A stretch of DNA of 39,743 nt from the NCBI GenBank assembly GCA_030647125.1, contig JAUSKC010000016.1:1-39743 (forward strand). Direction: 5' to 3'. Position numbers and translations under genes: made by a program. Position 1 is the first letter of the stretch, and each line of letters opens with the position of its first letter. A model generated the notes under the pieces. It was given only the letters and a program-made list of their open reading frames with translations, was not told where the DNA came from and ran no database searches. Origin of the DNA: Nanobdellota archaeon (GTDB lineage Archaea; Nanobdellota; Nanobdellia; Pacearchaeales; GW2011-AR1). Shown here piece by piece: positions 380-22,735 of this stretch.

Positions 380-610
380 ATGACAAATATAACCCTTTCA
401 ATTGATGACGAAGTTTACAAAAAAATGCGAAAGTATTCGGAGGTTAAATGGAGCGAGTTTGTTAGAAAATGTGTGCAAAAAAGAATTGAAGAGTTTGAAA
501 GCATAGAGAAAAGTCCAAATAAAGATAGTATCTTTACCATGTTTGCATCTGAGAATGTTTTAAAGAAAGATTGGGATAATGAATTAGATAGGCGGTGGGA
601 TAATGTTTAA
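380..610 (+). CDS. Ribbon-helix-helix antitoxin, partner of MazF-like toxin
   Basis: A 76-residue protein. Its N-terminal 40 residues have the beta-strand then two-helix pattern of MetJ/Arc (RHH) antitoxins: ITLSIDDEVYKKM, then WSEFVRKCVQKRIEEFE. This part would dimerise and bind DNA. The Trp/Asp-rich C-terminus (KDWDNELDRRWDNV) would wrap around the toxin. It overlaps the downstream MazF-like gene by 8 bases, so the two are translated together. The same WSE-[FV]-x-RK signature appears in the antitoxin at 27276-27494, so the two share a scaffold although their toxins belong to different families. Autoregulation through the repeat at 357-372 is likely. Confidence 0.8.
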   Translation: MTNITLSIDDEVYKKMRKYSEVKWSEFVRKCVQKRIEEFESIEKSPNKDSIFTMFASENVLKKDWDNELDRRWDNV

Positions 611-935
611 TCAGAGAGATATAGTTTTAATTCCTTTTCCTTATTCAGATTTGACTGGTTCTAAAAAAAGACCTGCGCTTATAATTTCAAATAAAAAACT
701 GAATAAAACTCAAGATAGAATTTGCTGTCTTGTTACAACAAATACTCATAAAGAGGATTTAGAAATTAAAGACAATTTTTTTGAAAAGGGAGATTTGCCA
801 TTCAAGAGTTTTGTAAGGCCCCATAGGATATTTACAATAAATGAAAAGATTATAGTAAAAAAGCTTTGCACTGTTAGCAATAGTTTTCATGAAAAGTTGA
901 TTGATAGCATAAATGAATATTTAAAAAAAGATTAG
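603..935 (+). CDS. mazF: MazF/PemK-family endoribonuclease toxin
   Basis: A 110-residue protein of usual MazF length. The N-terminus has the family pattern QRDIVLIPFPYSDLTGSKKR followed by PALIISN, where the strand, the conserved Arg-Pro and the following beta strand form the RNA-binding core; LVTTN and the hydrophobic C-terminal helix also fit. MazF enzymes cut single-stranded RNA at short sequences and are silenced by their antitoxin. It overlaps the RHH antitoxin gene by 8 bases and has no promoter of its own. The family call is confident; activity and cleavage specificity are not visible from sequence. Confidence 0.85.
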   Translation: MFNQRDIVLIPFPYSDLTGSKKRPALIISNKKLNKTQDRICCLVTTNTHKEDLEIKDNFFEKGDLPFKSFVRPHRIFTINEKIIVKKLCTVSNSFHEKLIDSINEYLKKD

Positions 936-3140: not shown

Positions 3141-3488
3141 TTATTTATCTAAATCTTCTTTTATATTTTGCATTTGCTTTTCTAAGATTGGAATATCTCT
3201 TTTTATTATTTCCCAGAGGAGAGTTATATCAATTCCAAAATAGTGATGAATCATCTTGTCTCTTGTTCCGACAATTTCCTTCCATTTGACTTCTTGATGC
3301 ATATCTTTTGTTTTGTTTGAGATATTTTTGCTTGCTTCTCCTATAATTTCTATTTCTCTTACAATAGCATTTTGCTTTAATCTGTTTGAAGATAGTTCTT
3401 CTTTAGAAAGATTAACAGAAAATTCTTTTATTGCATTTGTGCTATCTAATATATGTTTAACAAAAATTATATCCTCTTTTTCTGTCAT
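3141..3488 (-). CDS. hepT: HepT-family ribonuclease toxin (DUF86)
   Basis: A 115-residue all-helical protein with the HepT active-site motif R-x4-H-x-Y: R76, then HHYF at 81-84 within RDKMIHHYF. Other family signs are the helix with IEIIGEASKNIS and the KWKEIVGTRDKMIHHYF segment. HepT proteins are HEPN RNases whose active-site tyrosine is AMPylated by the partner MNT protein, which switches them off. The gene follows and overlaps (by 4 bases) the nucleotidyltransferase at 3485-3946, the usual order for this module. Confidence 0.88.
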   Translation of the reverse strand: MTEKEDIIFVKHILDSTNAIKEFSVNLSKEELSSNRLKQNAIVREIEIIGEASKNISNKTKDMHQEVKWKEIVGTRDKMIHHYFGIDITLLWEIIKRDIPILEKQMQNIKEDLDK

Positions 3489-3946
3489 ATTATTCTAATT
3501 TCTTGTTTTAATATCCTATCCCTTAAATAAGGGCTTATTCCTTTATAAGTCACCAAATCAACTTTTTTATTTAATTTTTCCGAGAGTTCAATTTGCAGTC
3601 CAGCAAATCCAAAACCCATTCCCTTTGGCAGTTCTATGAGTATATCAATATCACTGTTCTTTTTCTGCTCTCCTCGGGCGTAGCTTCCGAAAATTCCTGC
3701 CTTTTTTACTTTATTTTTCTTTAATATTCTTATTATTTTTGGCTTTATTTTGTCCAAAAATGACTCTCTTTTTTTGTTTTGGATAAGATTTTTATCAGCT
3801 TCCTGCTCTTTTTGAAAAAGTCTTTCTTTTGGGAGATTTAATCCCAAATATTTTCTTTTCTTAGATACTTTTTTCCCATTTCTTACAGAAATAACCCTGT
3901 AAAAATATTTCTTTCCATTTCTTTCTTTAATCTCAGTATATACCAT
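3485..3946 (-). CDS. mntA: MNT-type nucleotidyltransferase antitoxin with an extra N-terminal domain
   Basis: 153 residues, longer than the roughly 100 of a minimal MNT protein. The C-terminal half is a minimal Pol-beta nucleotidyltransferase: GS at 87-88 in GIFGSYARGE, ten residues, then D99-x-D101 in SDIDILIEL, and the third carboxylate D130 in KKVDLVTY. It would AMPylate and neutralise the HepT toxin encoded next to it. The first 40 residues (MVYTEIKERNGKKYFYRV, then KKVSKKRKYLG) are not part of that fold and resemble the N-terminus of the stalk protein at 17236. The ATG at 3946 lies directly behind the inverted repeat 3951-3966. Confidence 0.85.
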   Translation of the reverse strand: MVYTEIKERNGKKYFYRVISVRNGKKVSKKRKYLGLNLPKERLFQKEQEADKNLIQNKKRESFLDKIKPKIIRILKKNKVKKAGIFGSYARGEQKKNSDIDILIELPKGMGFGFAGLQIELSEKLNKKVDLVTYKGISPYLRDRILKQEIRII

Positions 3947-4081: not shown

Positions 4082-4144
4082 AATTTTCATCTATTTATAA
4101 TCTTTAGTAATAATGTAACTCTATAATAATAACAAGTAGTAAGA

Positions 4145-4153
4145 TTTTTAAAC
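4145..4153 (+). promoter_or_regulatory. TATA box of the radical SAM/Nudix operon
   Basis: TTTTTAAAC lies 20-28 bases before the ATG at 4173. No other convincing promoter was seen before 9472, because the following genes overlap or lie within 11 bases of each other. No inverted repeat accompanies this promoter, unlike those of the toxin-antitoxin loci. Confidence 0.5.
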
Positions 4154-4172
4154 TTGGAAAGGATATGGACTT

Positions 4173-5507
4173 ATGACACTTCAACATACTGGGGAATACT
4201 TAGTGGGTGGAGAAATATTGAGTTTTACTCAACAAAGAATAGTATCCCCTTTGCAAAAAGATGAAGAAAAAAGAATAAAAAATCTTTCAAAAAAAGAACG
4301 CGCACTTCGTTTTAATGGATTTGTGATAACTGATAAACAGGGAGAGATAATCTTTGAAGATAGAAAAAGATATGCACAGCATTTTTTTCCATTATCTGTT
4401 ATAGATTATGTAAGGGCAATGTATAATTTTGAGAGACATAAAAGACCAATTCCAATTCTTTCTGTAGATAGCCATGATGTATTGCAGTGTGATTTTAAGT
4501 GCCAGGACTGTTTGTCTGCTCATGGAACAAATTTTCCTGTAAAGCAATTTTCAAAGGGCAATTTTAAGATGGACTTGAAAACATATAAACAGATGTTAAA
4601 AGCAATTGCAGACTATTCTGAAAAAAGGGGTTTTAAGGGAGTAAGATTTGAACAATCTGGAGAGGGTAATCCAGATTATTATAAGCACAGACAGGAGATT
4701 TTAAGATATGCTCGAGAATTAGAGATGCAAAGTGTTTATGTTAGTACTGGAAGTAAAATAGATGACTCTTTAAGAAATAGTTTAGTGGAAAATGCTTCAT
4801 TTATACGAATCAGTTTTCCGGGAATTGGAGAAGCATATAAGCATTATTCTGGGCAAAGTGAATTTACATTTACAGATGCGTTGGATGGAGTGAGTAGAAT
4901 TGTAAAAGAAAGAGATAAGCAAGGAAGAAAAAAAGATTTAATGATTGGCGCAAGAGTGGCACTACGTGCAGAACATAGTGATAATTATTTTAGTTTTGCT
5001 AATAAATTAAAGGATATTGGAATTGATTCTTTACAGATTGTAAAAATACTTGTACCAGAAGGTAAGAAACCTTCAGATTTTCCATTAAACTCTGGTGATG
5101 CTTATGATTTGGAAAAAACTGAAACTTTAGATGATGTTAATTTTAATGTGAGCATACCTCATGGATTAGATTCCATGGTATACTCAAGAGAAATAGAAAA
5201 TCGAGCCGAATTCCCAACCCAATGTTTTAGCGCAAGATTTCAACCAGTTTTAGCTGGAAGAAGTTTATTTGTGTGTACTATCAGTGATATAATGTATTCT
5301 CACAATTTAAGACTTGGCACTTTTGCAAATGAAGGGGGAGAATTAGAAAGATTTTTATCTTCTGAAAACATAGAGAGAGTTACAACAGGAATTCCTGCCC
5401 AATGTAAGAGCTGTTCAAATATTTATGACAACATGCTATTATTTTCACTGCAAAAGTTATTTAGAACAAATCCTCAAAAATTAAATTTTTATGAGATTAT
5501 AAAATGA
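4173..5507 (+). CDS. Radical SAM enzyme with C-terminal auxiliary-cluster cysteines
   Basis: 444 residues and the first gene of a seven-gene operon. C106-x3-C110-x2-C113 (in QCDFKCQDC) is the 4Fe-4S motif that binds S-adenosylmethionine and makes the 5'-deoxyadenosyl radical. About 100 residues precede it, and the barrel continues with GVRFEQSGEGNPDYY (the position of the GGEP-type motif) and YVSTGSK. The C-terminus carries C351-x16-C368 and C411-x2-C414, a Twitch/SPASM-like set that could hold a second cluster. The tail CKSCSNIYDNML is nearly repeated in the third protein of the operon (CLDCACIYENDML). The substrate is unknown. It overlaps the next gene by ATGA. Confidence 0.85.
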   Translation: MTLQHTGEYLVGGEILSFTQQRIVSPLQKDEEKRIKNLSKKERALRFNGFVITDKQGEIIFEDRKRYAQHFFPLSVIDYVRAMYNFERHKRPIPILSVDSHDVLQCDFKCQDCLSAHGTNFPVKQFSKGNFKMDLKTYKQMLKAIADYSEKRGFKGVRFEQSGEGNPDYYKHRQEILRYARELEMQSVYVSTGSKIDDSLRNSLVENASFIRISFPGIGEAYKHYSGQSEFTFTDALDGVSRIVKERDKQGRKKDLMIGARVALRAEHSDNYFSFANKLKDIGIDSLQIVKILVPEGKKPSDFPLNSGDAYDLEKTETLDDVNFNVSIPHGLDSMVYSREIENRAEFPTQCFSARFQPVLAGRSLFVCTISDIMYSHNLRLGTFANEGGELERFLSSENIERVTTGIPAQCKSCSNIYDNMLLFSLQKLFRTNPQKLNFYEIIK

Positions 5508-6292
5508 AAGAATATAAGTTCAATATAAGCATTACTGAAAAGTGCAATCTACGTTGCCCTCATTGTTATACCAGAAACAAAAAGGGTTCTTTAACCACTG
5601 GAGAAGTAGATACTATAATTGGTAATTTAGAAGATGGACTGACTAGGGTAAAAATAGAGGGGGGAGAACCTTATTCTGAAAGAGAACTTTTCTATTATAC
5701 TATTCAACAATTTAGAAGGAGATTTCCAAAAGCTGAAATAAGAGCAAATTCAAACGGGGTGGCTTTTTACAAAGATAGAAATACAATTATACAAGAGGCT
5801 GACAAACTTTATTCTTTAGGAGTTAAAAAATTGAGGATATCTTTAGATAAATTTCATGAAGATGGTGGAGCAGATCTTGAAAAAGTAGCTTCCATAAAAG
5901 ATATTTTGGAAGAGATAAATCACCCATTAGATGTAAAATATATGTCTTTAACGCAAGCCTTGGCGATAGGAACAGCAGAAGATTTACCTGAAGAACAAAA
6001 GGAAAGAAGAAATTGTATGAATCACCCAGGATGTTTAGATAATCCTTATTTTTTTACAGACATAAAAGGGAATTTATACACTTGTTGCTGGAGACTAATT
6101 CCCCCCATCGGAAATTTACTTCAATCAAGACTCGGAGATCTGTATGATAATATAAATGAAATGCAAAGAAAATTACTTTCTGGAGATGTGAGATTTTTAG
6201 CAACAGATTCTCATTTATTAAAAGTGGTTGAAGATTTAGGAGAATGTATACTTTGTAAGGAGGTCTTTAAAGATTGTCAAGAAAATGAATAG
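5504..6292 (+). CDS. Radical SAM/SPASM-like enzyme
   Basis: 262 residues. C14-x3-C18-x2-C21 in EKCNLRCPHC is a textbook radical SAM motif close to the N-terminus, followed by GGEP at 53-56 (SAM amino-group contact) and LRISLDKFHED at 110-120. The C-terminus carries C171, C177, C194, C195 and C248-x2-C251-x6-C258, which fit a SPASM-type auxiliary cluster domain. Such enzymes often modify peptides or other large substrates. The start overlaps the stop of the preceding gene (ATGA) and its end overlaps the third gene by 8 bases. It is compact for a SPASM protein. Substrate unknown. Confidence 0.85.
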   Translation: MKEYKFNISITEKCNLRCPHCYTRNKKGSLTTGEVDTIIGNLEDGLTRVKIEGGEPYSERELFYYTIQQFRRRFPKAEIRANSNGVAFYKDRNTIIQEADKLYSLGVKKLRISLDKFHEDGGADLEKVASIKDILEEINHPLDVKYMSLTQALAIGTAEDLPEEQKERRNCMNHPGCLDNPYFFTDIKGNLYTCCWRLIPPIGNLLQSRLGDLYDNINEMQRKLLSGDVRFLATDSHLLKVVEDLGECILCKEVFKDCQENE

Positions 6293-7226
6293 AAAACTCT
6301 TTTTTAAAACTCCTGAAGACAAGCTTAGAGTCTTTCAAAAACCAAGATTAATAATGTTTTCAGAAGGATCTGAAGTAGAAAGCTGGGCTAATACTCAACC
6401 CCTTTATTTTTACCCATTTAGTTGGCTAGATTATTTGGGTAAGGAAGGAATTAGAGAATTATACATTCAGGATGTTTCTTTAGGACTCGCTGAAAAAGAG
6501 ATTAATGCTCTAGAGGGTGGAAAAGTTCATTTTGAACATCCCAATGAGCTATTAATTAAACTTGCAAAAGAAAGAGGGCATAAGGTTTCTGTAATTTGCA
6601 ATATTGAAGACTTATTGCCCGAACAGATTGAGGGGCTATCAATTTCAGATTTTGTCAGAATAAGAGTTAATAAAAATTGTGATAATTTGTGTTCATTGTC
6701 TGGCTTGCCAAATGAGCATGTTCTATCTTGTATTAAAGCATATGTAGGAGAAGGCTGTAATTATGGGGCTCTTGCATTGCAAGCCAGAGAAATAGGATTT
6801 GATTTTTTTCATATTGCTAAGAGACTTGAAAATGGGCATGATTTACTTCAATTATCAGAAGAAGAAAAACAAAAAATAAGGGATTTGCAAAAACTTGAAA
6901 CTGAACAATTTAGAGTGGTAATTCCTTCATCATTAGAAGAAAGATTTGCAAAGAGATTTGTAATCACTCCAAGTTTAGGTAATGTCTCTTCATGTGATTT
7001 TTCAAAATATAGGTTAGTTTTAAATGGAGATAATCTTTATCCTTGTTATACTGAGCATATTTTAGCTTTACAGGGATTTAGAAAAGAAGATACTGTAAAG
7101 AATCCCAATCATTGTTTAGATTGTGCTTGTATTTATGAGAACGATATGTTGCATGATATAAAAACTACAATGAGAAGATATAAAAATCCTAGTTTTGCTT
7201 TAAAATATATAGAAAATGGAAAATAA
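6285..7226 (+). CDS. Radical-SAM-like paralogue lacking the SAM-cluster cysteines
   Basis: 313 residues. It keeps the C-terminal auxiliary-cluster pattern of the first gene, C237-x16-C254 and C277-x2-C280, and the same tail (IYENDML against IYDNML), but no CxxxCxxC occurs in the N-terminal 230 residues; the only nearby cysteines are C132 and C136 in NKNCDNLCSLSG, which lack the third. The region before the first auxiliary Cys (FRVVIPSSLEE) aligns with FNVSIPHGLDS of the first protein. I infer a paralogue that lost radical chemistry and serves as a partner, scaffold or substrate-binding subunit. It overlaps both neighbours (8 and 11 bases). Confidence 0.7.
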   Translation: MNRKLFFKTPEDKLRVFQKPRLIMFSEGSEVESWANTQPLYFYPFSWLDYLGKEGIRELYIQDVSLGLAEKEINALEGGKVHFEHPNELLIKLAKERGHKVSVICNIEDLLPEQIEGLSISDFVRIRVNKNCDNLCSLSGLPNEHVLSCIKAYVGEGCNYGALALQAREIGFDFFHIAKRLENGHDLLQLSEEEKQKIRDLQKLETEQFRVVIPSSLEERFAKRFVITPSLGNVSSCDFSKYRLVLNGDNLYPCYTEHILALQGFRKEDTVKNPNHCLDCACIYENDMLHDIKTTMRRYKNPSFALKYIENGK

Positions 7227-7671
7227 TAAATTTGGACTTGGAGTAATAGTGTGCATTTTTAATAGAGACTTCTCTAAGATATTTCTTCTAAAAAGAAACA
7301 AAGCAAAAAGAGACCTAAACAAAGCTGATTGGGGAAATCCCGGGGGAAGAGTGGAATGGGGGGAAAAATTAGCTGAAGCTTGTGTAAGGGAAGTAAAAGA
7401 AGAAAGTGGAATTAATTTAGATCCAAAACAACTAAAACTTTTGAATATTAAAGAAATAACGGAAAATCCAATTGCTCCAACAGTTCATTTTTTACAGTTT
7501 ATCTATGCTACAAAGATAGATCAGATTGAAGAAATAATTTTAAATGAAGAATCAGAAGAATATGGGTGGTTTAATTTAAAAGAGTTACCAGGTAAAACTC
7601 TTGATCCAAAAGAGGACTTAATTAAACTAAGCATTGCTGCGAAAAAGAAGTTCTCGGAAGATGAAAACTGA
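7216..7671 (+). CDS. Nudix hydrolase A of the radical SAM operon
   Basis: 151 residues forming one Nudix fold. The Nudix box spans residues 44-66: G44, E50, R58-E59, E62-E63, G65, matching GX5EX7REUXEEXGU in full, so it should bind Mg2+ and hydrolyse a nucleoside-diphosphate-linked compound. It starts FGLGVIVCIFNRDFSKI and ends with YGWFNLKELPGKTLDPKEDL; both stretches are mirrored in the second Nudix protein of the operon at 9020. The substrate cannot be read from sequence. It overlaps the gene before it by 11 bases and the one after by 11. Confidence 0.88.
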   Translation: MENNKFGLGVIVCIFNRDFSKIFLLKRNKAKRDLNKADWGNPGGRVEWGEKLAEACVREVKEESGINLDPKQLKLLNIKEITENPIAPTVHFLQFIYATKIDQIEEIILNEESEEYGWFNLKELPGKTLDPKEDLIKLSIAAKKKFSEDEN

Positions 7672-8461
7672 AGATTTAAAAAAAACAAATAATCCTGATT
7701 TTGTTCATTCTCCTTTTAGATATCCTAGTAATCAAATCTATGCTCTTGATACGCTTTTATCGCTTATTCCAGAACATCAATTTTACATTGAGCCTTTTTG
7801 TGGCGGCGGTTCAACATTTTTTGGGAAGGCAAAAGCTGAAGATACTTGGTTAAATGATATAGATAGAGAGCTAATAGAAACTTATATGGCTATAAGAGAT
7901 CAACCAGAAGAACTTGTTGCTGCTTTAACTAGGGAAGAAGTTTCTGAAAAAAGATATAATCATTTTAAAACGGGATTTACGCTAAGAAATGGTTTTGAGA
8001 CAGCGGTGAGATGGTTTTATTTAAACAGAACTTCTCGTTTAGAAACAATGAGTATGCTTTGGGAGCATGATGACAAAATAACCCCTATACCTGAAAATTG
8101 GAGTAGTATGATTCTCGAATGTTCTAAAAAATTGCAGGGTGTAAGATTAACTCATGGAGATTTTGAGAAAGTGCTAAACGAAGCTCCAGAAGAATCATTT
8201 TTATTTATAACTCCACCTTATTCGATACATCACTCTTCAGCTCAGAATAGACTACATAAATATCCTTTTGAAAGAGAAGCCCATTTTAGGCTTGCAAATG
8301 CATTAAAATTAAAAGATGGGAGAGTAAAATTTCTAGTGGCTTACAATGAAAACGAAGAGTTAAGGGAAATGTACTCATGGGGGGAGCATATAACCATTAC
8401 TAGTTTACCAAACAAGTCCCCTCAAAAAGAAGAGATCATTATTATGAACTATAAAATTTAG
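7661..8461 (+). CDS. D12-class adenine-N6 DNA methyltransferase-like protein with altered catalytic motif
   Basis: 266 residues from ATG 7661; a longer TTG start at 7634 would run further into the Nudix gene and is less likely. Residues FRYPSNQ (19-25), FYIEPFCGGGSTFF (41-54, SAM-binding motif I), LNDID (64-68), FYLNRTS (119-125) and the closing EEIIIMNY match Dam/D12 methylases in order. Two key sites differ: the DPPY catalytic motif is TPPY (184-187), and the usual GGK after RYP is SNQ. The enzyme may therefore be inactive on DNA or act on another amine. No restriction gene is adjacent, and it is embedded in the radical SAM operon. Confidence 0.8.
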   Translation: MKTEDLKKTNNPDFVHSPFRYPSNQIYALDTLLSLIPEHQFYIEPFCGGGSTFFGKAKAEDTWLNDIDRELIETYMAIRDQPEELVAALTREEVSEKRYNHFKTGFTLRNGFETAVRWFYLNRTSRLETMSMLWEHDDKITPIPENWSSMILECSKKLQGVRLTHGDFEKVLNEAPEESFLFITPPYSIHHSSAQNRLHKYPFEREAHFRLANALKLKDGRVKFLVAYNENEELREMYSWGEHITITSLPNKSPQKEEIIIMNYKI

Positions 8462-8472
8462 ATTAAATTAAA

Positions 8473-9027
8473 ATGATAAAACAAAATATCTTTATGATTG
8501 GTGGAGCAAAGGGAGTTGGAAAAACAAGATTAACATTAGATGTATCTTCTGATTTAAGATTAGCTAGAATAGAAACTGGGAAAGTTGTATTTGATTACAT
8601 TTTTCAGGGATTGCCTTTAGAGGGGTTAACTGATTATATCACTGAAGAAATACTTTCCCAAGATAGAAATTTAATTTTAGATACTCATTATGCTAGATAT
8701 TCTGATAAAGAAGAGCCCAATAAACAATTTAGAAGAGGGCTTGAACCAGAAGATTTAGAGAGATTATTAAAAAAATTTAATATTTTCCCCTGTCTTGTTG
8801 AAGTTCCTCTTTGCGAACTTGAGCAAAGGAGAAGAAATGATCCAAAGAAGAGAGTAACTAACCCACTTTATATTATGCAAGAAGTTGAATTTAATCGCCG
8901 AGGTTACGAGCTTTATCTTCAAGAGGTTAATAAACAGCCATTTGTTTTAATTAATGATTTATATACAAGTGCTAGAAATAATTTGGGTAGATGGATAACT
9001 GAAAATAAGGGGGTTCAAAATGGATGA
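8473..9027 (+). CDS. P-loop nucleotide/nucleoside kinase-like protein
   Basis: 184 residues. Walker A is GAKGVGKT (11-18), ten residues from the start, as in adenylate-kinase-like and AAA_33 kinases. A Walker-B-like NLILD follows at 66-70, and a basic lid-like segment, LEQRRRNDPKKRV, at 116-128 fits phosphoryl-transfer enzymes rather than a motor ATPase. It could phosphorylate a nucleotide or a modified nucleoside; the acceptor is not predictable. The gap from the methylase-like gene is 11 bases, and the gene overlaps the second Nudix gene by 8 bases. Confidence 0.75.
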   Translation: MIKQNIFMIGGAKGVGKTRLTLDVSSDLRLARIETGKVVFDYIFQGLPLEGLTDYITEEILSQDRNLILDTHYARYSDKEEPNKQFRRGLEPEDLERLLKKFNIFPCLVEVPLCELEQRRRNDPKKRVTNPLYIMQEVEFNRRGYELYLQEVNKQPFVLINDLYTSARNNLGRWITENKGVQNG

Positions 9028-9472
9028 AAAAAGATTTGGTTTAGGTACTGTTCTTTATGTGTTTAGTCAAGATTTGTCTAGAGTCTTGCTTCTGAAATTA
9101 AATGAGCATAAAAGAGTTAAGTTCGGAGCAGATTGGGGAAATGTCGGAGGAAAAATAAATCTTGGAGAAACTTCACTTGAGAATTGCATAAGAGAATCAG
9201 AAGAAGAGATTGGAATAAGATTTAAACCAAAGGACTTACAATTATTATATGTAAAAGAGATACCAAATTTCTTTAATAAGATTCATGCAGTACAATTTGT
9301 ATACGGAACTGCTTTGGATGAACAAACACCGATAATTTTAGGGAAGGAGCTAGAATCTTATCGATGGTTTGATTTATCTGATTTACCTGAGAAAACATTA
9401 GATACAAAAGAAGATTTTTATCATGCTCAAAGTCAGCTCAGAGGTTTATTTAACACTTCAGTAAGATGGTAA
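9020..9472 (+). CDS. Nudix hydrolase B of the radical SAM operon
   Basis: 150 residues, clearly a paralogue of the Nudix protein at 7216: FGLG, ADWGNVGGK, LLYVKEI and LPEKTLDTKEDF align without gaps over most of the length. The Nudix box is at 44-66 (G44, E50, R58-E59, E62-E63, G65); one hydrophobic position is Ser (RES instead of REV). All metal-binding residues are kept. Two sister Nudix enzymes in one operon suggest either two related substrates or a heterodimer. It is the last gene; about 100 AT-rich bases with T-runs separate it from the convergent minus-strand genes. Confidence 0.87.
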   Translation: MDEKRFGLGTVLYVFSQDLSRVLLLKLNEHKRVKFGADWGNVGGKINLGETSLENCIRESEEEIGIRFKPKDLQLLYVKEIPNFFNKIHAVQFVYGTALDEQTPIILGKELESYRWFDLSDLPEKTLDTKEDFYHAQSQLRGLFNTSVRW

Positions 9473-9579
9473 ACTTCAAATTATGATTAACTTTTTATTA
9501 TCATTTATTAATAAAGCAATCTAATTTAGTTTTATTTTCCAAACTCTGTAACCTTTAGAAGAATCTAATATAGGTTTTT

Positions 9580-10524
9580 TTAGATATTCTTAAGTCTAAC
9601 AGCTTCATTAATCATCTTTTCTCCTGTTTTGCCCCAAGGACAATATTCTAGAAATTCTTCTGGAGAGATGAATTTTCTTTTTGGGATTTTGTTATGGGCA
9701 GGATCTATTGTTTGTGGTTTTATCTTAACAATATTTGCAATATATCTTAACTGATAAAAAGTTGATTTGACTCTATTTTTGATTTGTTCTATCTTATTAT
9801 ATCCAATAGGTTTTATGTTTTTAATTTCAATGTCTGCTTCTTCATCAACTTCCCTCATTAGTGTCTGTTCAAAACTTTCGCCTTTTTCAGGAGTTCCACC
9901 AGGAAGTGTCCAATTTCCGGTAACATTTATTATACATATTTTATCTAAGTTGTCAAAGCAAATTCCATAAATTTGTTTAACATTTTTTAATTTTGAAAAA
10001 TCCTTATTATTATACCAAGTTAAATAGCTTGCTTCTTCATTATTAATAAATATTGTTTTACATTCATTAGAAGTATAATCATCAATTCTCGTCCATGGGT
10101 GATCTATCTTTTGTTCTGCCCCTAATTTAAGTATTGATTTTAGTTCTCTTTTATTTCCTTCCCAATCAATTAAATTAACAAAGGAATCTAAAGATCTCCA
10201 TTGATAATCAATTACCTCAATATTATCTAATTTAACTTTCTCTAAATCAATAAATGCCATAAAATATAATTCTTCATGTATCTTATTTTGCCATTTATAT
10301 CTACAACCCCATTTTAGATTATAAATTTCTTTAACTTCTAATCCTGTTTCTTCTAATACTTCTCGTTTGACAGCTTCTTCATAAGATTCTTTATTTTCAA
10401 CGCTTCCAGTAGTTGTAAACCAATGCGACTTTCCATGTATCTCTAGTTTGTCTCCTTTTGTTTTAAGAATTAGAAATTCTTTTTGCTTTTTATTATAGAT
10501 AAAGGCGAGTATCTTTTTATTCAT
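9580..10524 (-). CDS. Tandem Nudix protein (two Nudix domains fused)
   Basis: 314 residues with two Nudix domains. Box 1 at 40-62 is complete (G40, E46, R54-E55, E58-E59, G61). Box 2 at 210-232 keeps G210, E216, R224-E225 and E228-E229 but has Asp instead of the final Gly (EEAD instead of EExG). The second domain contains GNWTLPGGTPEKGES, as in MutT-like enzymes. One domain may be catalytic and the other regulatory or specific for another substrate. It overlaps the GNAT gene by 4 bases and is the last gene of a minus-strand run. It is not a close copy of the two Nudix proteins in the plus-strand operon. Confidence 0.85.
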   Translation of the reverse strand: MNKKILAFIYNKKQKEFLILKTKGDKLEIHGKSHWFTTTGSVENKESYEEAVKREVLEETGLEVKEIYNLKWGCRYKWQNKIHEELYFMAFIDLEKVKLDNIEVIDYQWRSLDSFVNLIDWEGNKRELKSILKLGAEQKIDHPWTRIDDYTSNECKTIFINNEEASYLTWYNNKDFSKLKNVKQIYGICFDNLDKICIINVTGNWTLPGGTPEKGESFEQTLMREVDEEADIEIKNIKPIGYNKIEQIKNRVKSTFYQLRYIANIVKIKPQTIDPAHNKIPKRKFISPEEFLEYCPWGKTGEKMINEAVRLKNI

Positions 10525-11063
10525 CTTCTATACTCTTTTTTTAATAAACCATAAAGGATTTCATCTTTGACTTTGCCGTCTGCCTTGCAAACTCGCGCTT
10601 GTCTTTTATAACCCTCTTTTTCAAACCCGTATTTTTCAAGTAATCTTCCGGACGACGGATTTCCTGCAAAAACTCCTGCCTCAAGACGACTTAATTTTAA
10701 TCTTTTAAATGCAAAATTAATTAGTGCATTTAGCATTTCAGAACCGTAACCTTTGTTGTGATATTTTTCTCCAATCCAGTAACCAATTTCTGCGGAATGT
10801 CCATTTACATGATGCAAACCCCCTCCACCAATTATTCTTCTTTCTTCTTTAATTTCAATTCCAAAAGTATAATCCTCTTTCTTTTTCTTCTTCCACTTTT
10901 CTTGATTATGTTTTATCCAAGAACGGGCATCTTTCAAAGTATAAGGGTATGGAACAACAAGCAACCATCTTGAAATATTCAAGTTATTTCCATTTTCAAC
11001 TATGTCTTTCGCATCGGACATTCTTAATGGTCTTAGTATTAATCTTTTAGTTTCGAGTTTCAT
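10521..11063 (-). CDS. GNAT N-acetyltransferase, RimJ/RimL type
   Basis: 180 residues starting with MKLETKRLILRPLRMSDAKD, the standard opening of RimJ/RimL-like acetyltransferases. The acetyl-CoA pyrophosphate loop is seen in EKYHNKGYGSEML (Q/N-x-x-G-x-G/A type), followed by the C-terminal signature GNPSSGRLLEKYGFEKEG. These enzymes acetylate the N-terminus of ribosomal or other proteins, or small amines; specificity cannot be assigned. It overlaps the genes on both sides by 4 bases, so it shares an operon with the HIT and tandem Nudix proteins. Confidence 0.87.
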   Translation of the reverse strand: MKLETKRLILRPLRMSDAKDIVENGNNLNISRWLLVVPYPYTLKDARSWIKHNQEKWKKKKKEDYTFGIEIKEERRIIGGGGLHHVNGHSAEIGYWIGEKYHNKGYGSEMLNALINFAFKRLKLSRLEAGVFAGNPSSGRLLEKYGFEKEGYKRQARVCKADGKVKDEILYGLLKKEYRR

Positions 11064-11515
11064 TTTTTAATTTTTTTTGCTAGTTTCTTTAATTTTTCGT
11101 CATCTGCTCTTTTGTAATCATGGCTTGAGATGTAACCTTCATATTTCTCGAAATATTTGTCAACATTAGATTTTAGTTCTTTCCATTCTTTCATGTTTGC
11201 TGTTCCATGCATGGGAAAAAGTTTGACATGAACGTGGTCTACTCCAAAACCTTCAAAGATCATTCCAGTTCTTCCAACATCTTCAACTTTTGTATCTATT
11301 AACTTTGCGACTTTTTTACTTGCTATAACTAATTCACTTAAAACTTTGTCTGATAAATCAAAAGCGTAACTTGAATAATGTTTCTTTGGTATAACTACAC
11401 TAAATCCTTCTGTATTTGGGAATATAGAAAGAAATGCTAAATGTTTTTCATCTTCCCATATTTTATGTGCTGGGGCTTCTCCATTTACAATTTTACAAAA
11501 AATGCAACTTTCCAT
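11060..11515 (-). CDS. HIT-family nucleotide hydrolase/transferase
   Basis: 151 residues. It has the N-terminal zinc pair C4-x2-C7 (SCIFCKIVNGEAPAHKI) and the histidine triad region DHVHVKLFP. The first two histidines, H94 and H96, are present; H96 corresponds to the catalytic His of Hint, whose phosphoramidate activity hydrolyses AMP-linked substrates. The third triad position is Lys98 instead of His. The C-terminus from about 105 is longer than in Hint1. Neighbouring Nudix and MazG genes fit a nucleotide clean-up role. The GNAT gene overlaps its stop by 4 bases. Confidence 0.87.
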   Translation of the reverse strand: MESCIFCKIVNGEAPAHKIWEDEKHLAFLSIFPNTEGFSVVIPKKHYSSYAFDLSDKVLSELVIASKKVAKLIDTKVEDVGRTGMIFEGFGVDHVHVKLFPMHGTANMKEWKELKSNVDKYFEKYEGYISSHDYKRADDEKLKKLAKKIKK

Positions 11516-11549
11516 AATTAAGTGTGAAAAATCATATTTTTAGAATTAT

Positions 11550-11834
11550 CTATTTGATATACTTTCTATATTTTTCTAAAACGTCTTCCATAACTTCGTT
11601 CAAATCTAAATTATATTCATTTGCTAATAAAATAAATGTAAATAATGCATCACCGAATTCATCATTTAAATCACTGACCTCTTTTCTTTGATAACCCTCT
11701 TTAACGTTCATGCATTTACTAATTTCACCTATTTCTTCAACAAGTCTTGCAAAAATTACAAACTTTGGCCATTTTTCAACACCTGCTTTTTCAAACCACT
11801 TATCAACTTTCTTCTGTGCTTCTTTTAAGTCCAT
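11550..11834 (-). CDS. MazG-like nucleotide pyrophosphohydrolase
   Basis: 94 residues, a single MazG-type four-helix unit. The Mg2+-binding pattern EExxE, about 20 residues, ExxD is seen as LVEEIGEISK (E33, E34, E37) and NDEFGDALF (E59, D62). Such enzymes hydrolyse NTPs or modified dNTPs to monophosphates. It lies 6 bases after the Cys-rich surface protein gene on the same strand and 34 bases before the HIT gene, so it could be transcribed with either. The short length matches dimeric or tetrameric MazG-like proteins of archaea. Confidence 0.85.
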   Translation of the reverse strand: MDLKEAQKKVDKWFEKAGVEKWPKFVIFARLVEEIGEISKCMNVKEGYQRKEVSDLNDEFGDALFTFILLANEYNLDLNEVMEDVLEKYRKYIK

Positions 11835-19100: not shown

Positions 19101-19337
19101 GTGGCAAAGCTTAAGAAAGTTATAGAAGAAGTTAAGAAAATTTTAAAGAAAGATAAACGCGGCTTGACTATTCAGGAACTTTCCGACGCTATTGGGGTTT
19201 CGAGGATAACTGTTTCTATGGCCTTGATGAATCTTGCCGGAGCTGGTTTAATTCAAGTCCGTTCAATTGGAAATTGTAAATTACATTATGCGTCGGTTTT
19301 ATTGCAAAAAACACGCCGGGCGGATGGTGGAAAATGA
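19101..19337 (+). CDS. Small winged-helix transcription regulator
   Basis: 78 residues starting at GTG, with GAGGT four bases upstream. Residues 18-60 form a helix-turn-helix: GLTIQELSDAIGVSRITVSM then ALMNLAGAGLI, with the recognition helix at SRITVSMAL and a wing at QVRSIGNCKLHY. The N-terminus is Lys-rich. No ligand domain is present, so it acts as a simple DNA-binding switch. Its stop overlaps the ATG of the 1133-residue Hint protein (ATGA), so it likely controls that operon, and itself, through the operator at 19047-19082. Confidence 0.8.
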   Translation: MAKLKKVIEEVKKILKKDKRGLTIQELSDAIGVSRITVSMALMNLAGAGLIQVRSIGNCKLHYASVLLQKTRRADGGK

Positions 19338-22300
19338 AAAAATTAGTTTTGTTTTTTATTTTGTTGCTGCTTTTACAAAACGTTTATGCTGGTATTGGTA
19401 GTTCATCTAATTTTAATACAAGTAATAAAGGGGATTCAGGAGGTGTAAATAATAACGCAACTTCTGCAAGTTTTACACAAAGATTCTTTTCAGGCGTTGG
19501 CGCGGTAGGTCAGTATATTGTTTCTACATTGAGCGGGCGGTTTGGTGTTTTGGGGGATACAGCAGTTTCGTTGGCCATAAATGTGACTTCGCCGTCGAAT
19601 AATTCAATTCTTGTAAGGGGAAATGAAAGTTTTACGGGTGAAGATGATTTGGGAATAATAAGCAATTTTCTAAATATCACTGCAAATGTTTATGATGTAA
19701 ACACTTTGTTGGGTTACGAGTCCGCTACTTGTTATTTTTATAATGAAGGAGTTTCAATAGGAAGCAGCAGCACTAATTCTTCTGGGGATTGTTTTATTCA
19801 ATACAATAAGAGTGCTGATAGTGTCGGGATAAGAAATTTCTTTGTTAATTTTTCTTCAACTTCGGGGAATACTAGTATTGAAAATTCAAGTGTAAATATT
19901 TCTTTGGAAAGATACGTGACGAGTTTGACTATGAGCAACTTACAGATCAATGGTAAATATTACAATGGAGATCAGGCCGTTTTGTTAATATCTGTAAGAA
20001 AAAGCAATGCAAGTGTGACAAGCCAACTTTATGATCCTATAAATATTTCTGCTGCAGCAATGAATAGTATTAATGCTATTAGGGGAATAAAATATTATCC
20101 TGGAAATAATATAACAAAATTAAGCACGGGACAGTATTCTACAAATGTTACATTAGTTTACGGTGCTGGTGCTGATTCTTTTGTAAAATGGCAAGTTAAT
20201 TTGAGCGATGACGGATTTGTAAATTATCTTGGAAGTGCGTTGCATTCTGATGAAGATATTTGTTCGGCGGACTTTGGCGCGTTTAGCGATTGGAGCGCGT
20301 GTTCGGGCGGAACGCAAACACGAACGAGGAATGATACTAGTGGTTGCAGCGAAGTTCAGACGCAAAGCTGTTCGTCTGGAGGAGATAGTTGTTTCCCTGC
20401 CGGAACGAAAATTACAATGGCTGACGGAAGTAAGAAAAATATTGAGGATGTTAAAATTGGAGAGTATGTTAAATCTTATGATTTGATTAATGATAAAATT
20501 GTTTATGCAAAAGTTCTTGAAATTGAGTCACCTATTAGAGAAGGATATTATGATGTCGGTGGGATTTTGAATGTTACAGACGAACATCCAATTTATGTAA
20601 TGAAAAAAGATGGGCGTAAGGGATGGGGTGCGGTTAATGTTACAAAAGCTAAAATCAATTTGCAAAAATCAACGTTAAGTGGGCAAGATTTATTTTCTGT
20701 TGAGAAAGGAGACAAACTGTTTAATGAAGATGGAAGCTGGGTGGAAATAAAATATTTGAATTATGTAAAAGGAGAAATCCAAACTTATAATTTGAAGCAA
20801 GTTGATAATTATAATGTTTTCTTTGCTGCTAGTGTTTTGGTGCACAACAAAGGAGAAACTGAAACTTGTAGCAACGAATGTTCTTCAGGAGCGACGCAAA
20901 CTACGTGTTTAACTGATAGTAATTTAGGTACGAGAACTTGCGGCAACTTTGATTCTGATACTTGTACTGAATGGGGTTCATGGTCTTCAAATTCATGCAG
21001 TGCCGGAAATGTTTGTTCAAATGCGCAGTGCGTTCAATCAACATGTACTGAGAATTGGAATTGCAATTCTTGGGGCTCTTGTGTAAATGGAATACAAACT
21101 CGGGCTTGTAATGATTTGAATAGTTGCGGAACTAGTAATAATAAACCTTTAGAAACGAAGCAGTGTAATATTGTTCCTTATGTTTCAATTGATGGAGGAG
21201 AGTGTTTCCCTAATTGGGATTGCGGCGATTGGGGAAGTTGCCGTGGCTTTTATGATCTTAATGATGTTTTGAAAAATGTTAATGCAGTTAATGGAACTCA
21301 AACGAAAACGTGTAGGGATTTAACAGGGTGTGCTTACAATGAAACCGAAGCTAGGACGTGTTCTTTAAGAGTTCCTATTGAAGCACGTTTGACTCAATGG
21401 TGTTATGATGATTATGTTGAGATTTATGAAGTTAGTTCAGGGGCGCTTGTAAGTAGAGTCAAACAATCTGAAATAGCCTTTACTAATTTGAGTAGAATTG
21501 ATATTACCTTTACGTCGTCGAATTTCACTGGAAGTTGCGCTTATTGTTTTAATGGAATAAAGGATTATGATGAGACGGGAGTCGATTGTGGTGGACAGTA
21601 TTGCGGCAGCTGCCTTTCGATTTACGGCGTTTTTGACTGGGCTTTCTGGGTTGTCGTCGGCTCTTGGTTCAGTTTTGGATTTTTCCTTATAATATTATGG
21701 AGAAGAGAAGACGAAGAGAGAAAGAAAGAAGGAAAGGAAAGCTTGCTTGAAAGTGTTGCCGAGGAAGTTGAAAGCGTGCAAATTAGTTCGGCAAGAGAAA
21801 AGGAAATTGAAGTGGAAATTGCAATTTTCTTCAGAAAGATTTTGGAAAGCAGAGTTTCCGTCGAGAAACCAGAAACAAAAGTCGGAGAAAAGGTTGTTTA
21901 TGTTGAGCCTGAAGTTCAAATTAAGAGAAGAAGAAATATCCTTTTGGAACAACTTAAGAGAAAACTTCATGAGTGGAAGAAAGAGGGCTATAGTGGAACT
22001 ACGGCTTTAGAAGAAAAAATAAGAAAATTGGAAAGTAAGAATAAAAGTTTCTTTAGCAGAGTAGTTTCTAGTTACAAAGAAAGGGCGGTTGAAGCGCAAA
22101 GGTCTGAAAGATTAGAAAAAGAAAAAGAGATGCGAGCAGAAAGAGAAGAGAAAAGAAATGAAAAAGAAGAAATGTTGAAGTATGAAAGATCAAGAGCTCG
22201 TTCTGAAAGAGAGTTACGTCTTGAAAGGGCTGAAAGTGAAAGAAAATGGAATGAACAAAAGTCGTCGATTAAAAAATGGTTTGGCGGTTTGTTTGTTTCA

Positions 22301-22735
22301 TCTAAGAAAGTTTCTCCGACGGAAAAGATCAAGAAAATTGTTGTTGAAAAAGAAAGACCTAAGATTAGAGTTGAAGAAAAACACAAAGTTAAAAGCGGAT
22401 TTTTTGCAAGATTATTTGCTAGATCATCTGAAAGAGAAAGATTGCATAAGAAATTGTTGATAGAAAAGAAAGTTCAAGAAAAGAATGTGCGCCATATTGA
22501 AAAAGTTAAATTAAAGGTTGAAAAGAAGAGAATAAAATCAGTTCAAAAAGAAAGAAAGAGAGTTGAAAAGGAAAGAAGAAAGGTTATAAAGAAAAAGATA
22601 AGCAAAGTTACGCGAGAGATAAGGAAGAGAAAGTTCCTTGACTTGATGAGAAAGTTGCGATTATGGAGGAAAGAAGGATATTACGGAACTGCGGTCTTGG
22701 AAGAAGAAGTTAAACGACTGAAGAGGCAGTTGTAA
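19334..22735 (+). CDS. Giant surface protein with Hint (intein-like) domain and cytoplasmic coiled-coil tail
   Basis: 1133 residues. A signal peptide (1-19, ends NVYA) is followed by beta domains with many N-x-S/T sites. A thrombospondin-like W-SAC-GG-QTRTR segment leads into a Hint domain (C353 to N505; CFPAGTKITMADG, then VTDEHPIYV, ending VLVHN). Next come Cys-rich units of the type WNCNSWGSCVNGIQTRAC and a C-x2-C-x-NGIKDYDETGVDCGG box. A membrane helix lies near 765-788, followed by about 345 residues rich in Lys, Arg and Glu (coiled coil). Two tail segments share L-x3-LRK/KRKL-x2-W-[KR]KEGY-x-GT-x2-LEE (about 869-902 and 1101-1133). Its ATG overlaps the regulator gene. The topology, sensor or adhesin outside and long cytoskeletal-like tail inside, is inferred. 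Confidence 0.8.
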   Translation: MKKLVLFFILLLLLQNVYAGIGSSSNFNTSNKGDSGGVNNNATSASFTQRFFSGVGAVGQYIVSTLSGRFGVLGDTAVSLAINVTSPSNNSILVRGNESFTGEDDLGIISNFLNITANVYDVNTLLGYESATCYFYNEGVSIGSSSTNSSGDCFIQYNKSADSVGIRNFFVNFSSTSGNTSIENSSVNISLERYVTSLTMSNLQINGKYYNGDQAVLLISVRKSNASVTSQLYDPINISAAAMNSINAIRGIKYYPGNNITKLSTGQYSTNVTLVYGAGADSFVKWQVNLSDDGFVNYLGSALHSDEDICSADFGAFSDWSACSGGTQTRTRNDTSGCSEVQTQSCSSGGDSCFPAGTKITMADGSKKNIEDVKIGEYVKSYDLINDKIVYAKVLEIESPIREGYYDVGGILNVTDEHPIYVMKKDGRKGWGAVNVTKAKINLQKSTLSGQDLFSVEKGDKLFNEDGSWVEIKYLNYVKGEIQTYNLKQVDNYNVFFAASVLVHNKGETETCSNECSSGATQTTCLTDSNLGTRTCGNFDSDTCTEWGSWSSNSCSAGNVCSNAQCVQSTCTENWNCNSWGSCVNGIQTRACNDLNSCGTSNNKPLETKQCNIVPYVSIDGGECFPNWDCGDWGSCRGFYDLNDVLKNVNAVNGTQTKTCRDLTGCAYNETEARTCSLRVPIEARLTQWCYDDYVEIYEVSSGALVSRVKQSEIAFTNLSRIDITFTSSNFTGSCAYCFNGIKDYDETGVDCGGQYCGSCLSIYGVFDWAFWVVVGSWFSFGFFLIILWRREDEERKKEGKESLLESVAEEVESVQISSAREKEIEVEIAIFFRKILESRVSVEKPETKVGEKVVYVEPEVQIKRRRNILLEQLKRKLHEWKKEGYSGTTALEEKIRKLESKNKSFFSRVVSSYKERAVEAQRSERLEKEKEMRAEREEKRNEKEEMLKYERSRARSERELRLERAESERKWNEQKSSIKKWFGGLFVSSKKVSPTEKIKKIVVEKERPKIRVEEKHKVKSGFFARLFARSSERERLHKKLLIEKKVQEKNVRHIEKVKLKVEKKRIKSVQKERKRVEKERRKVIKKKISKVTREIRKRKFLDLMRKLRLWRKEGYYGTAVLEEEVKRLKRQL
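20390..20848 (+). other. Hint/BIL (intein-like) protein domain, no endonuclease
   Basis: This segment encodes residues 353-505 of the giant surface protein. It begins with Cys (CFPAGTKITMADGSKKNIED), the splicing N-terminal nucleophile, has the block-B-like VTDEHPIYV, and ends FAASVLVHN, the His-Asn pair that cyclises to cut the C-terminal bond. The next residue is Lys, not Cys/Ser/Thr, so standard intein splicing is not expected. At about 153 residues there is no room for a homing endonuclease. Such domains (bacterial-intein-like, Hedgehog-like) cleave or rearrange secreted proteins. The fate here could be self-cleavage at Cys353, at Asn505, or both. Confidence 0.75.

What the first reader, a model, noticed from the sequence alone, without database searches (positions are those of the whole stretch)
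4173..9472. Seven-gene radical SAM / Nudix / D12-methylase-like / kinase operon with no known counterpart
Two radical SAM enzymes, a cluster-less radical SAM relative, two sister Nudix hydrolases, an amine-methyltransferase-like protein and a P-loop kinase are packed with overlaps or an 11-base gap behind a single promoter. Seen directly: motifs and gene order. From family knowledge: radical SAM plus kinase plus nucleotide-handling enzymes occur together in nucleoside antibiotic synthesis and in phage DNA hypermodification. Inference: this operon makes or installs a modified nucleotide or base, with the Nudix enzymes trimming activated intermediates. A peptide-modifying system is possible but no precursor peptide gene is present. 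This is my main candidate for a new system.
Basis: partly seen in the sequence, partly recalled or inferred. Interest (0 to 1): 0.85.

Follow-up and report, generated by a model that had tools for sequence, protein, structure and literature searches.

The report
Seven-gene archaeal radical-SAM metabolite cassette
A tightly packed seven-gene unit in a tiny DPANN archaeon, found as one block in only one other genome sampled, combines radical enzymes, nucleotide-handling enzymes and a DNA-methylase relative that has lost its key DNA-methylating residues, so it probably makes an unusual nucleotide-type small molecule by a route not yet described.

Summary
Seven plus-strand genes (4173-9472), with junctions of -4, -8, -11, -11, +11 and -8 bases, follow one conserved TATA-like element. 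A second copy exists in a Lake Pavin Pacearchaeota MAG of another genus of the same family. Homology covers exactly window 4113-9497 (84-85% DNA identity), same order, unrelated flanks; dN/dS 0.06-0.23. Close copies occur in 2 of 181 family genomes; none was found in phage, plasmid or viral collections. It is a rare, discrete cassette, not a chance assembly. Main new results: (1) The D12 'methylase' E has lost the DPPY aspartate (T/A; D in 32 of 32 homologues) and motif X lysine (Q; K in 29 of 29) but keeps the SAM-binding motif, so it cannot be an ordinary adenine methylase. (2) Gene C is a paralogue of radical-SAM gene A that keeps the auxiliary-cluster cysteines but lacks CX3CX2C. (3) In the second genome A and C are both broken; B and D-G are intact. 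(4) F is distantly archaeal-adenylate-kinase-like. Best reading: synthesis of a modified nucleotide or nucleotide-linked small molecule. A nucleotide-activated sugar is a serious rival; base installation and RiPP readings are weaker. Chemistry is inferred; AlphaFold models failed (pLDDT 35).

The parts
4113..9497 (+). Conserved cassette: the exact extent of DNA homology with L002 9941-15070
   Evidence: blastn 85.1% and 84.7% in two pieces, interrupted only by a deletion in gene C of L002; flanks unrelated
4145..4155 (+). TATA-like promoter element (TTTTTAAACTT), 18-28 nt before the ATG of gene A
   Evidence: identical stretch AGATTTTTAAACTT at the same distance in L002
4173..5507 (+). Gene A: radical SAM protein, 444 aa, CX3CX2C (C106, C110, C113) plus twitch-like auxiliary-cluster cysteines C351, C368, C411, C414
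   Evidence: exactly seven cysteines, all conserved in L002; NCBIfam W_rSAM_matur 30.9 bits, viperin 27.7 bits, both far below cut-off
5504..6292 (+). Gene B: radical SAM protein, 262 aa, CNLRCPHC, MoaA-like N-terminal half, further cysteines at 171-258
   Evidence: Pfam PF04055 39.5 bits, moaA 55.9 bits, PDB MoaA 1tv7/2fb2 E 4e-5
6285..7226 (+). Gene C: radical-SAM-like paralogue of A without CX3CX2C; keeps auxiliary-cluster cysteines C237, C254, C277, C280
   Evidence: hhalign A vs C E 3e-5 over the C-terminal domain, BLASTP 6e-4, cysteines; no family hit
7216..7671 (+). Gene D: Nudix hydrolase with complete Nudix box GX5EX7REVKEESG
   Evidence: PF00293 71.4 bits; box
7661..8461 (+). Gene E: D12-class methyltransferase homologue; motif IV TPPY (APPY in L002), motif X SNQ (GNQ in L002), motif I EPFCGG retained
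   Evidence: PF02086 75.2 bits; motif comparison with up to 32 homologues
8473..9027 (+). Gene F: P-loop small-molecule kinase (GAKGVGKT, LDTH, QRRxxDxxxR), distantly archaeal-adenylate-kinase-like
   Evidence: no Pfam match above cut-off; relative in L035 (33% identity) best matches NF003122 archaeal adenylate kinase, 28.7 bits, below cut-off
9020..9472 (+). Gene G: second Nudix hydrolase, paralogue of D (about 43% identical), box GX5EX7RESEEEIG
   Evidence: PF00293 54.2 bits; alignment A3

Best explanation
The cassette is a self-contained biosynthetic operon that makes a modified nucleotide or nucleotide-linked small molecule. Shown: the genes form one conserved, selectively constrained unit; A and B carry the radical-SAM cysteine motif; C lacks that motif but keeps the cysteines for an auxiliary cluster; D and G have intact catalytic Nudix residues; E has lost the two residues that methylate adenine but keeps its SAM-binding motif. 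Inferred: F phosphorylates a nucleotide-type substrate or intermediate. A, working with its partner C (whose single auxiliary cluster could bind substrate or pass electrons), carries out a radical oxidation or C-H functionalisation, and B carries out a second radical step. E, recruited from a restriction-modification methylase, transfers a SAM-derived group to the small molecule or acts as a SAM- or substrate-binding subunit. D and G hydrolyse pyrophosphate-linked intermediates or detoxify side products.
For: Unit conservation with sharp edges and dN/dS 0.06-0.23. Two Nudix enzymes with intact boxes. F relative best matched by archaeal adenylate kinase. E is D12 by HMM but lacks D and K (with PMC3814359). 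A and C are paralogues with matching auxiliary-cluster cysteines, and both are disrupted together in L002, which is expected if they act as a pair. No precursor peptide in the conserved block.
Against: No enzyme has an assigned substrate. Nudix and P-loop kinase families also act on sugars, cofactors and lipids. The remote relatives of A that could be read sit mostly in surface-glycan loci. Only two genomes carry the unit and one copy is partly broken. Structure predictions of C and F failed.
Confidence: 0.42

Rival explanations
1. The cassette makes or modifies a nucleotide-activated sugar or other surface-glycan precursor, with the Nudix enzymes acting on NDP-sugars.
For: Several remote relatives of A that could be read in context lie in DPANN surface-polysaccharide loci with NDP-sugar epimerases, glycosyltransferases and flippases. 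In two of them the A-like rSAM gene is directly followed by a Nudix gene (L031 overlap, L025 29-base gap).
Against: Identity to those rSAM proteins is only about 20-30%; the cassette has no epimerase, glycosyltransferase or nucleotidyltransferase; sugar pathways do not explain the D12 or adenylate-kinase-like proteins.
Confidence: 0.24
2. DNA or RNA base hypermodification: E binds nucleic acid and presents a base to the radical enzymes, or transfers an unusual SAM-derived group.
For: E belongs to a base-methylating family. A DNA methyltransferase relative that transfers a carboxymethyl group is known (CmoX, PMC12783734), so altered active sites can mean altered chemistry on DNA.
Against: Motif IV D, motif X GGK and the conserved F/Y...G near the target site are all lost in E; no nucleic-acid-specific enzyme, glycosylase or polymerase in the cassette; no phage or viral homologue of A, C or F, nor of E closer than about 30% identity.
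Confidence: 0.13
3. Peptide (RiPP) maturation by the radical SAM enzymes on a precursor encoded elsewhere.
For: Twitch/SPASM radical SAM enzymes commonly act on peptides; NCBIfam peptide maturases appear among weak hits of B.
Against: No precursor or small conserved ORF in the conserved block; two Nudix enzymes and a nucleotide-kinase-like protein are not expected; the block recurs without a peptide gene.
Confidence: 0.08
4. A viperin-like antiviral nucleotide system: radical dehydration of a nucleotide, supported by a kinase.
For: Weak similarity of A and B to viperin profiles; viperins are found with kinases (PADLOC names); toxin-antitoxin genes lie nearby; rare, patchy distribution.
Against: Scores 20-34 bits against a curated cut-off of 180; B scores better to MoaA; A has an N-terminal extension and a twitch domain that do not fit; F does not match PADLOC models.
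Confidence: 0.07
5. Chance assembly or decaying genes with no joint function.
For: In L002, gene A has an in-frame TAG and gene C a 257-base deletion with frameshift.
Against: Seven genes conserved in order with unrelated flanks, dN/dS well below 1, including A after the stop codon (0.12).
Confidence: 0.04

Closest known systems
D12-class DNA adenine-N6 methyltransferases (Dam, DpnII, and the homologue at L066 6489-7346)
   Same: E matches the family over its whole length (75 bits), is 42% identical to the L066 protein, and keeps motif I EPFxGG
   Different: motif IV D changed to T/A, motif X GGK changed to SNQ/GNQ, conserved F/Y..G changed to R..E; no endonuclease partner; embedded in a radical SAM operon
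Twitch-domain radical SAM enzymes (BtrN, MoaA, SkfB)
   Same: A has CX3CX2C plus four C-terminal cysteines in the twitch order; B resembles MoaA in its N-terminal half
   Different: glycine-to-cysteine spacing is 5 rather than 4 in A and C; A has an N-terminal extension; C lacks the SAM-cluster motif altogether
Radical SAM / Nudix pairs of DPANN surface-glycan loci (L025, L031)
   Same: A-like rSAM gene directly followed by a Nudix gene
   Different: 20-30% identity; other partners (transketolase, NDP-sugar epimerase, HIT-like protein) instead of D12, AdkA-like kinase and C
Prokaryotic viperins (SAND) with kinases
   Same: radical SAM plus nucleotide-kinase-type gene
   Different: profile scores far below cut-off; extra twitch domain, second rSAM, Nudix pair and D12 protein
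Archaeal adenylate kinase (NF003122)
   Same: Walker A, DxH and QRRxxD...R features in F and its L035 relative (motif likeness to adenylate kinase from own knowledge; profile hit of the relative)
   Different: F itself scores below detection, and the L035 relative scores 28.7 bits against a cut-off of 155

Membership tests
Radical SAM superfamily (A, B) | CX3CX2C cluster motif | tested here: met
   C106/110/113 in A and C14/18/21 in B, conserved in L002
Radical SAM superfamily (A, B) | PF04055 above curated cut-off | tested here: inconclusive
   B 39.5 bits (met); A 16.8 bits against 29.5 (not met)
Radical SAM superfamily (C) | CX3CX2C cluster motif | tested here: not met
   no such motif in C; homologous to A, so a cluster-less paralogue
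Twitch-domain radical SAM enzymes | CX9-15GX4C, gap, CX2C (PMC6231123) | tested here: inconclusive
   A and C have CX10GX5C, gap, CX2C: right cysteine number and order, spacing off by one
D12 DNA adenine-N6 methyltransferase | D12 profile match | tested here: met
   PF02086 75.2 bits, cut-off 22
D12 DNA adenine-N6 methyltransferase | motif IV DPPY catalytic aspartate | tested here: not met
   TPPY and APPY; D in 32 of 32 homologues
D12 DNA adenine-N6 methyltransferase | motif X GGK lysine | tested here: not met
   SNQ and GNQ; K in 29 of 29 homologues
Type II restriction-modification | endonuclease gene next to the methylase | tested here: not met
   no endonuclease family match in the cassette
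Nudix hydrolases (D, G) | Nudix box with REUXEE glutamates and profile match | tested here: met
Archaeal adenylate kinase (F) | NF003122 above cut-off | tested here: not met
   no hit for F; relative in L035 28.7 bits against 155
Prokaryotic viperin | NF038283 above cut-off (180 bits) | tested here: not met
   A 27.7, B 26.6 bits
RiPP biosynthetic cluster | precursor peptide gene | tested here: not met
   no separate small ORF in the conserved block; precursor elsewhere in the genome not excluded
Any of these pathways | enzyme activity and product | not testable with these tools
   needs biochemistry and mass spectrometry

The most novel reading that the evidence does not exclude
A previously undescribed pathway in which a restriction-modification DNA methylase has been turned into a small-molecule SAM enzyme and works with a radical SAM enzyme whose partner is a paralogue stripped of its SAM cluster but keeping its auxiliary cluster, to make a new nucleotide-type metabolite carried as a rare cassette among DPANN archaea.
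Probability: 0.28. Interest if true: 0.85.

Novelty: new variant of a known kind. Interest (0 to 1): 0.58.

Why it matters
If right, it would be an instance of a D12 DNA methylase being recruited away from DNA methylation, give a natural system for asking what a radical SAM relative does when it keeps only its auxiliary cluster, and show that ultra-small DPANN genomes carry dedicated specialised-metabolite cassettes. All seven proteins are small and can be expressed together, so the question is directly testable.

Tried and rejected
AlphaFold models of C and F from two-sequence alignments were uninformative (pLDDT 35), so no fold search was run. Viral-contig scans with A, C, E, F and the Nudix pair found no relative; phage and plasmid tblastn with A and phage tblastn with C and F found nothing; phage hits of E are D12 methylases at about 27-30% identity. 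Pfam, NCBIfam, PHROGs and PADLOC gave no name for C or F. Rfam and tRNA scans were empty. Flanking direct or inverted repeats of 9 bases or more at the cassette ends were sought and not found. GC content gave no sign of foreign origin (31.9% against 33.4%). The idea that E is an active DNA methylase was rejected on its motifs. Literature searches found no described counterpart.

Full report
WHAT IS THERE. Junctions are A/B -4, B/C -8, C/D -11, D/E -11, E/F +11 and F/G -8 bases; E begins at ATG 7661. A TATA-like element (TTTTTAAACTT) just upstream of A is identical in the second copy. No separate small gene lies within the conserved block.

IT IS A REAL UNIT. A scan of 84,980 species genomes with A returned one relative, L002, from a Lake Pavin sediment Pacearchaeota MAG. 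The same genome appears as G381, in the same family as the window's genome but another genus. All seven genes are there in the same order. DNA homology runs from window 4113 to 9497 and stops sharply on both sides; the flanks share no DNA homology. Pairwise dN/dS (NG86) is A 0.14, B 0.06, D 0.15, E 0.12, F 0.12, G 0.13 and the surviving part of C 0.23. Gene C is in 2 of 181 family genomes and in no other of 371 phylum genomes sampled. For B the next-best family hit drops from 610 to 38 bits. The distribution fits a cassette that has moved, or survived while neighbours were rearranged; repeated loss cannot be excluded, and GC content gives no signal.

THE SECOND COPY IS PARTLY BROKEN. In L002 gene A has an in-frame TAG at codon 288 and gene C a 257-base deletion with a frameshift, while B, D, E, F and G are open. 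A remains constrained after the stop (dN/dS 0.12), so the stop is recent, or a sequencing or assembly error. That A and C are hit in the same genome fits a joint role, but it is one case.

GENE E. It matches the D12 profile over its length. Among up to 32 D12 homologues from the phylum, the motif IV aspartate is present in 32 of 32 and the motif X GGK in 29 of 29. E has T/A and SNQ/GNQ at these places, and has also lost the conserved F/Y and G of the LNRxx(F/Y)xG stretch, while the motif I EPFxGG and the ND(I/V)D aspartate are kept. In RlmJ, mutation of either equivalent residue abolishes activity, and the same paper reports loss of activity for equivalent mutants of EcoDam and EcoRV (PMC3814359). 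E is therefore not an ordinary adenine methylase. Its closest intact relative found (42% identical, DPPY) stands next to a gene that reads like a restriction endonuclease; that reading is by eye and was not confirmed by a profile. Recruitment of E from a restriction-modification system is an inference from this.

GENES A, B, C. A has exactly seven cysteines: three for the SAM cluster and four in the order of a twitch auxiliary cluster, with glycine-to-cysteine spacing of five where the published motif has four (PMC6231123). C is homologous to the C-terminal part of A (hhalign E 3e-5, probability 73%; BLASTP 6e-4) and keeps the four auxiliary cysteines but has no CX3CX2C. In PapB, electron return to the SAM cluster is intermolecular, probably through an auxiliary cluster (PMC10470005), which makes an electron-passing role for C conceivable; this is speculation. 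B resembles MoaA in its N-terminal half.

GENES D, F, G. D and G are Nudix paralogues with intact catalytic glutamates. F has Walker A, DTH and QRR..D...R features; its one clear relative (L035, 33% identity) best matches archaeal adenylate kinase, well below that model's cut-off, and lies next to an IucA/IucC-like gene.

CONTEXT OF A-LIKE PROTEINS. Several of the remote relatives of A (20-30% identity) that could be read in context are in DPANN surface-glycan loci, and in two of these (L025, L031) the rSAM gene is directly followed by a Nudix gene. This makes the nucleotide-sugar rival serious.

HOW IT MOST LIKELY WORKS. Shown: unit, motifs, loss of catalytic residues in E, C with only auxiliary-cluster cysteines. 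Inferred: a small nucleotide-type substrate is phosphorylated by F, altered by radical chemistry of A with C and by B, possibly given a SAM-derived group by E, with D and G hydrolysing pyrophosphate-linked intermediates. Confidence 0.42. The sugar rival gets 0.24, nucleic-acid hypermodification 0.13, RiPP 0.08, viperin-like antiviral 0.07.

NOVELTY. Literature searches found no described operon of this composition, within a library that lacks most subscription journals. The parts are known superfamilies; the combination, the remodelled D12 enzyme and the cluster-less radical SAM partner appear new. Rated as a new variant of a known kind (radical SAM biosynthetic operon).

Noticed in passing
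window 380-935, 1034-1607, 3141-3946: Three toxin-antitoxin-like gene pairs upstream of the operon: a MazF-like pair (45 bits to MazF), a HepT/MntA type VII pair (40 and 52 bits, below the cut-off of 60), and a possible third pair at 380-935 without a family match.
   Followed up: partly
[quoted passage not shown]
   Followed up: partly
window 9580-11834, minus strand: Convergent gene group next to the cassette: a protein with two Nudix domains, a GNAT acetyltransferase, a HIT-family protein and a MazG-like pyrophosphohydrolase, nucleotide-handling types apart from the GNAT.
   Followed up: partly
L035 9262-11017: An F-like kinase gene overlapping an IucA/IucC-like (siderophore synthetase type) gene in another DPANN genome.
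   Followed up: partly
L025 1656-3136 and L031 1358-2813: A-like radical SAM gene directly followed by a Nudix gene in surface-glycan type loci.
   Followed up: partly
L068 (G313 contig 6) 1550-3859: Three D12 methylase-like genes in tandem on one short contig.
   Followed up: no
L035 6742-9261: S-adenosylmethionine synthetase-like ORF of 839 aa that appears to contain an intein (read by eye).
   Followed up: no
window 19334-22735: Large secreted-type protein with a Hint/intein-like stretch (CFPAGTKITMADGS...VHN) (read by eye).
   Followed up: no
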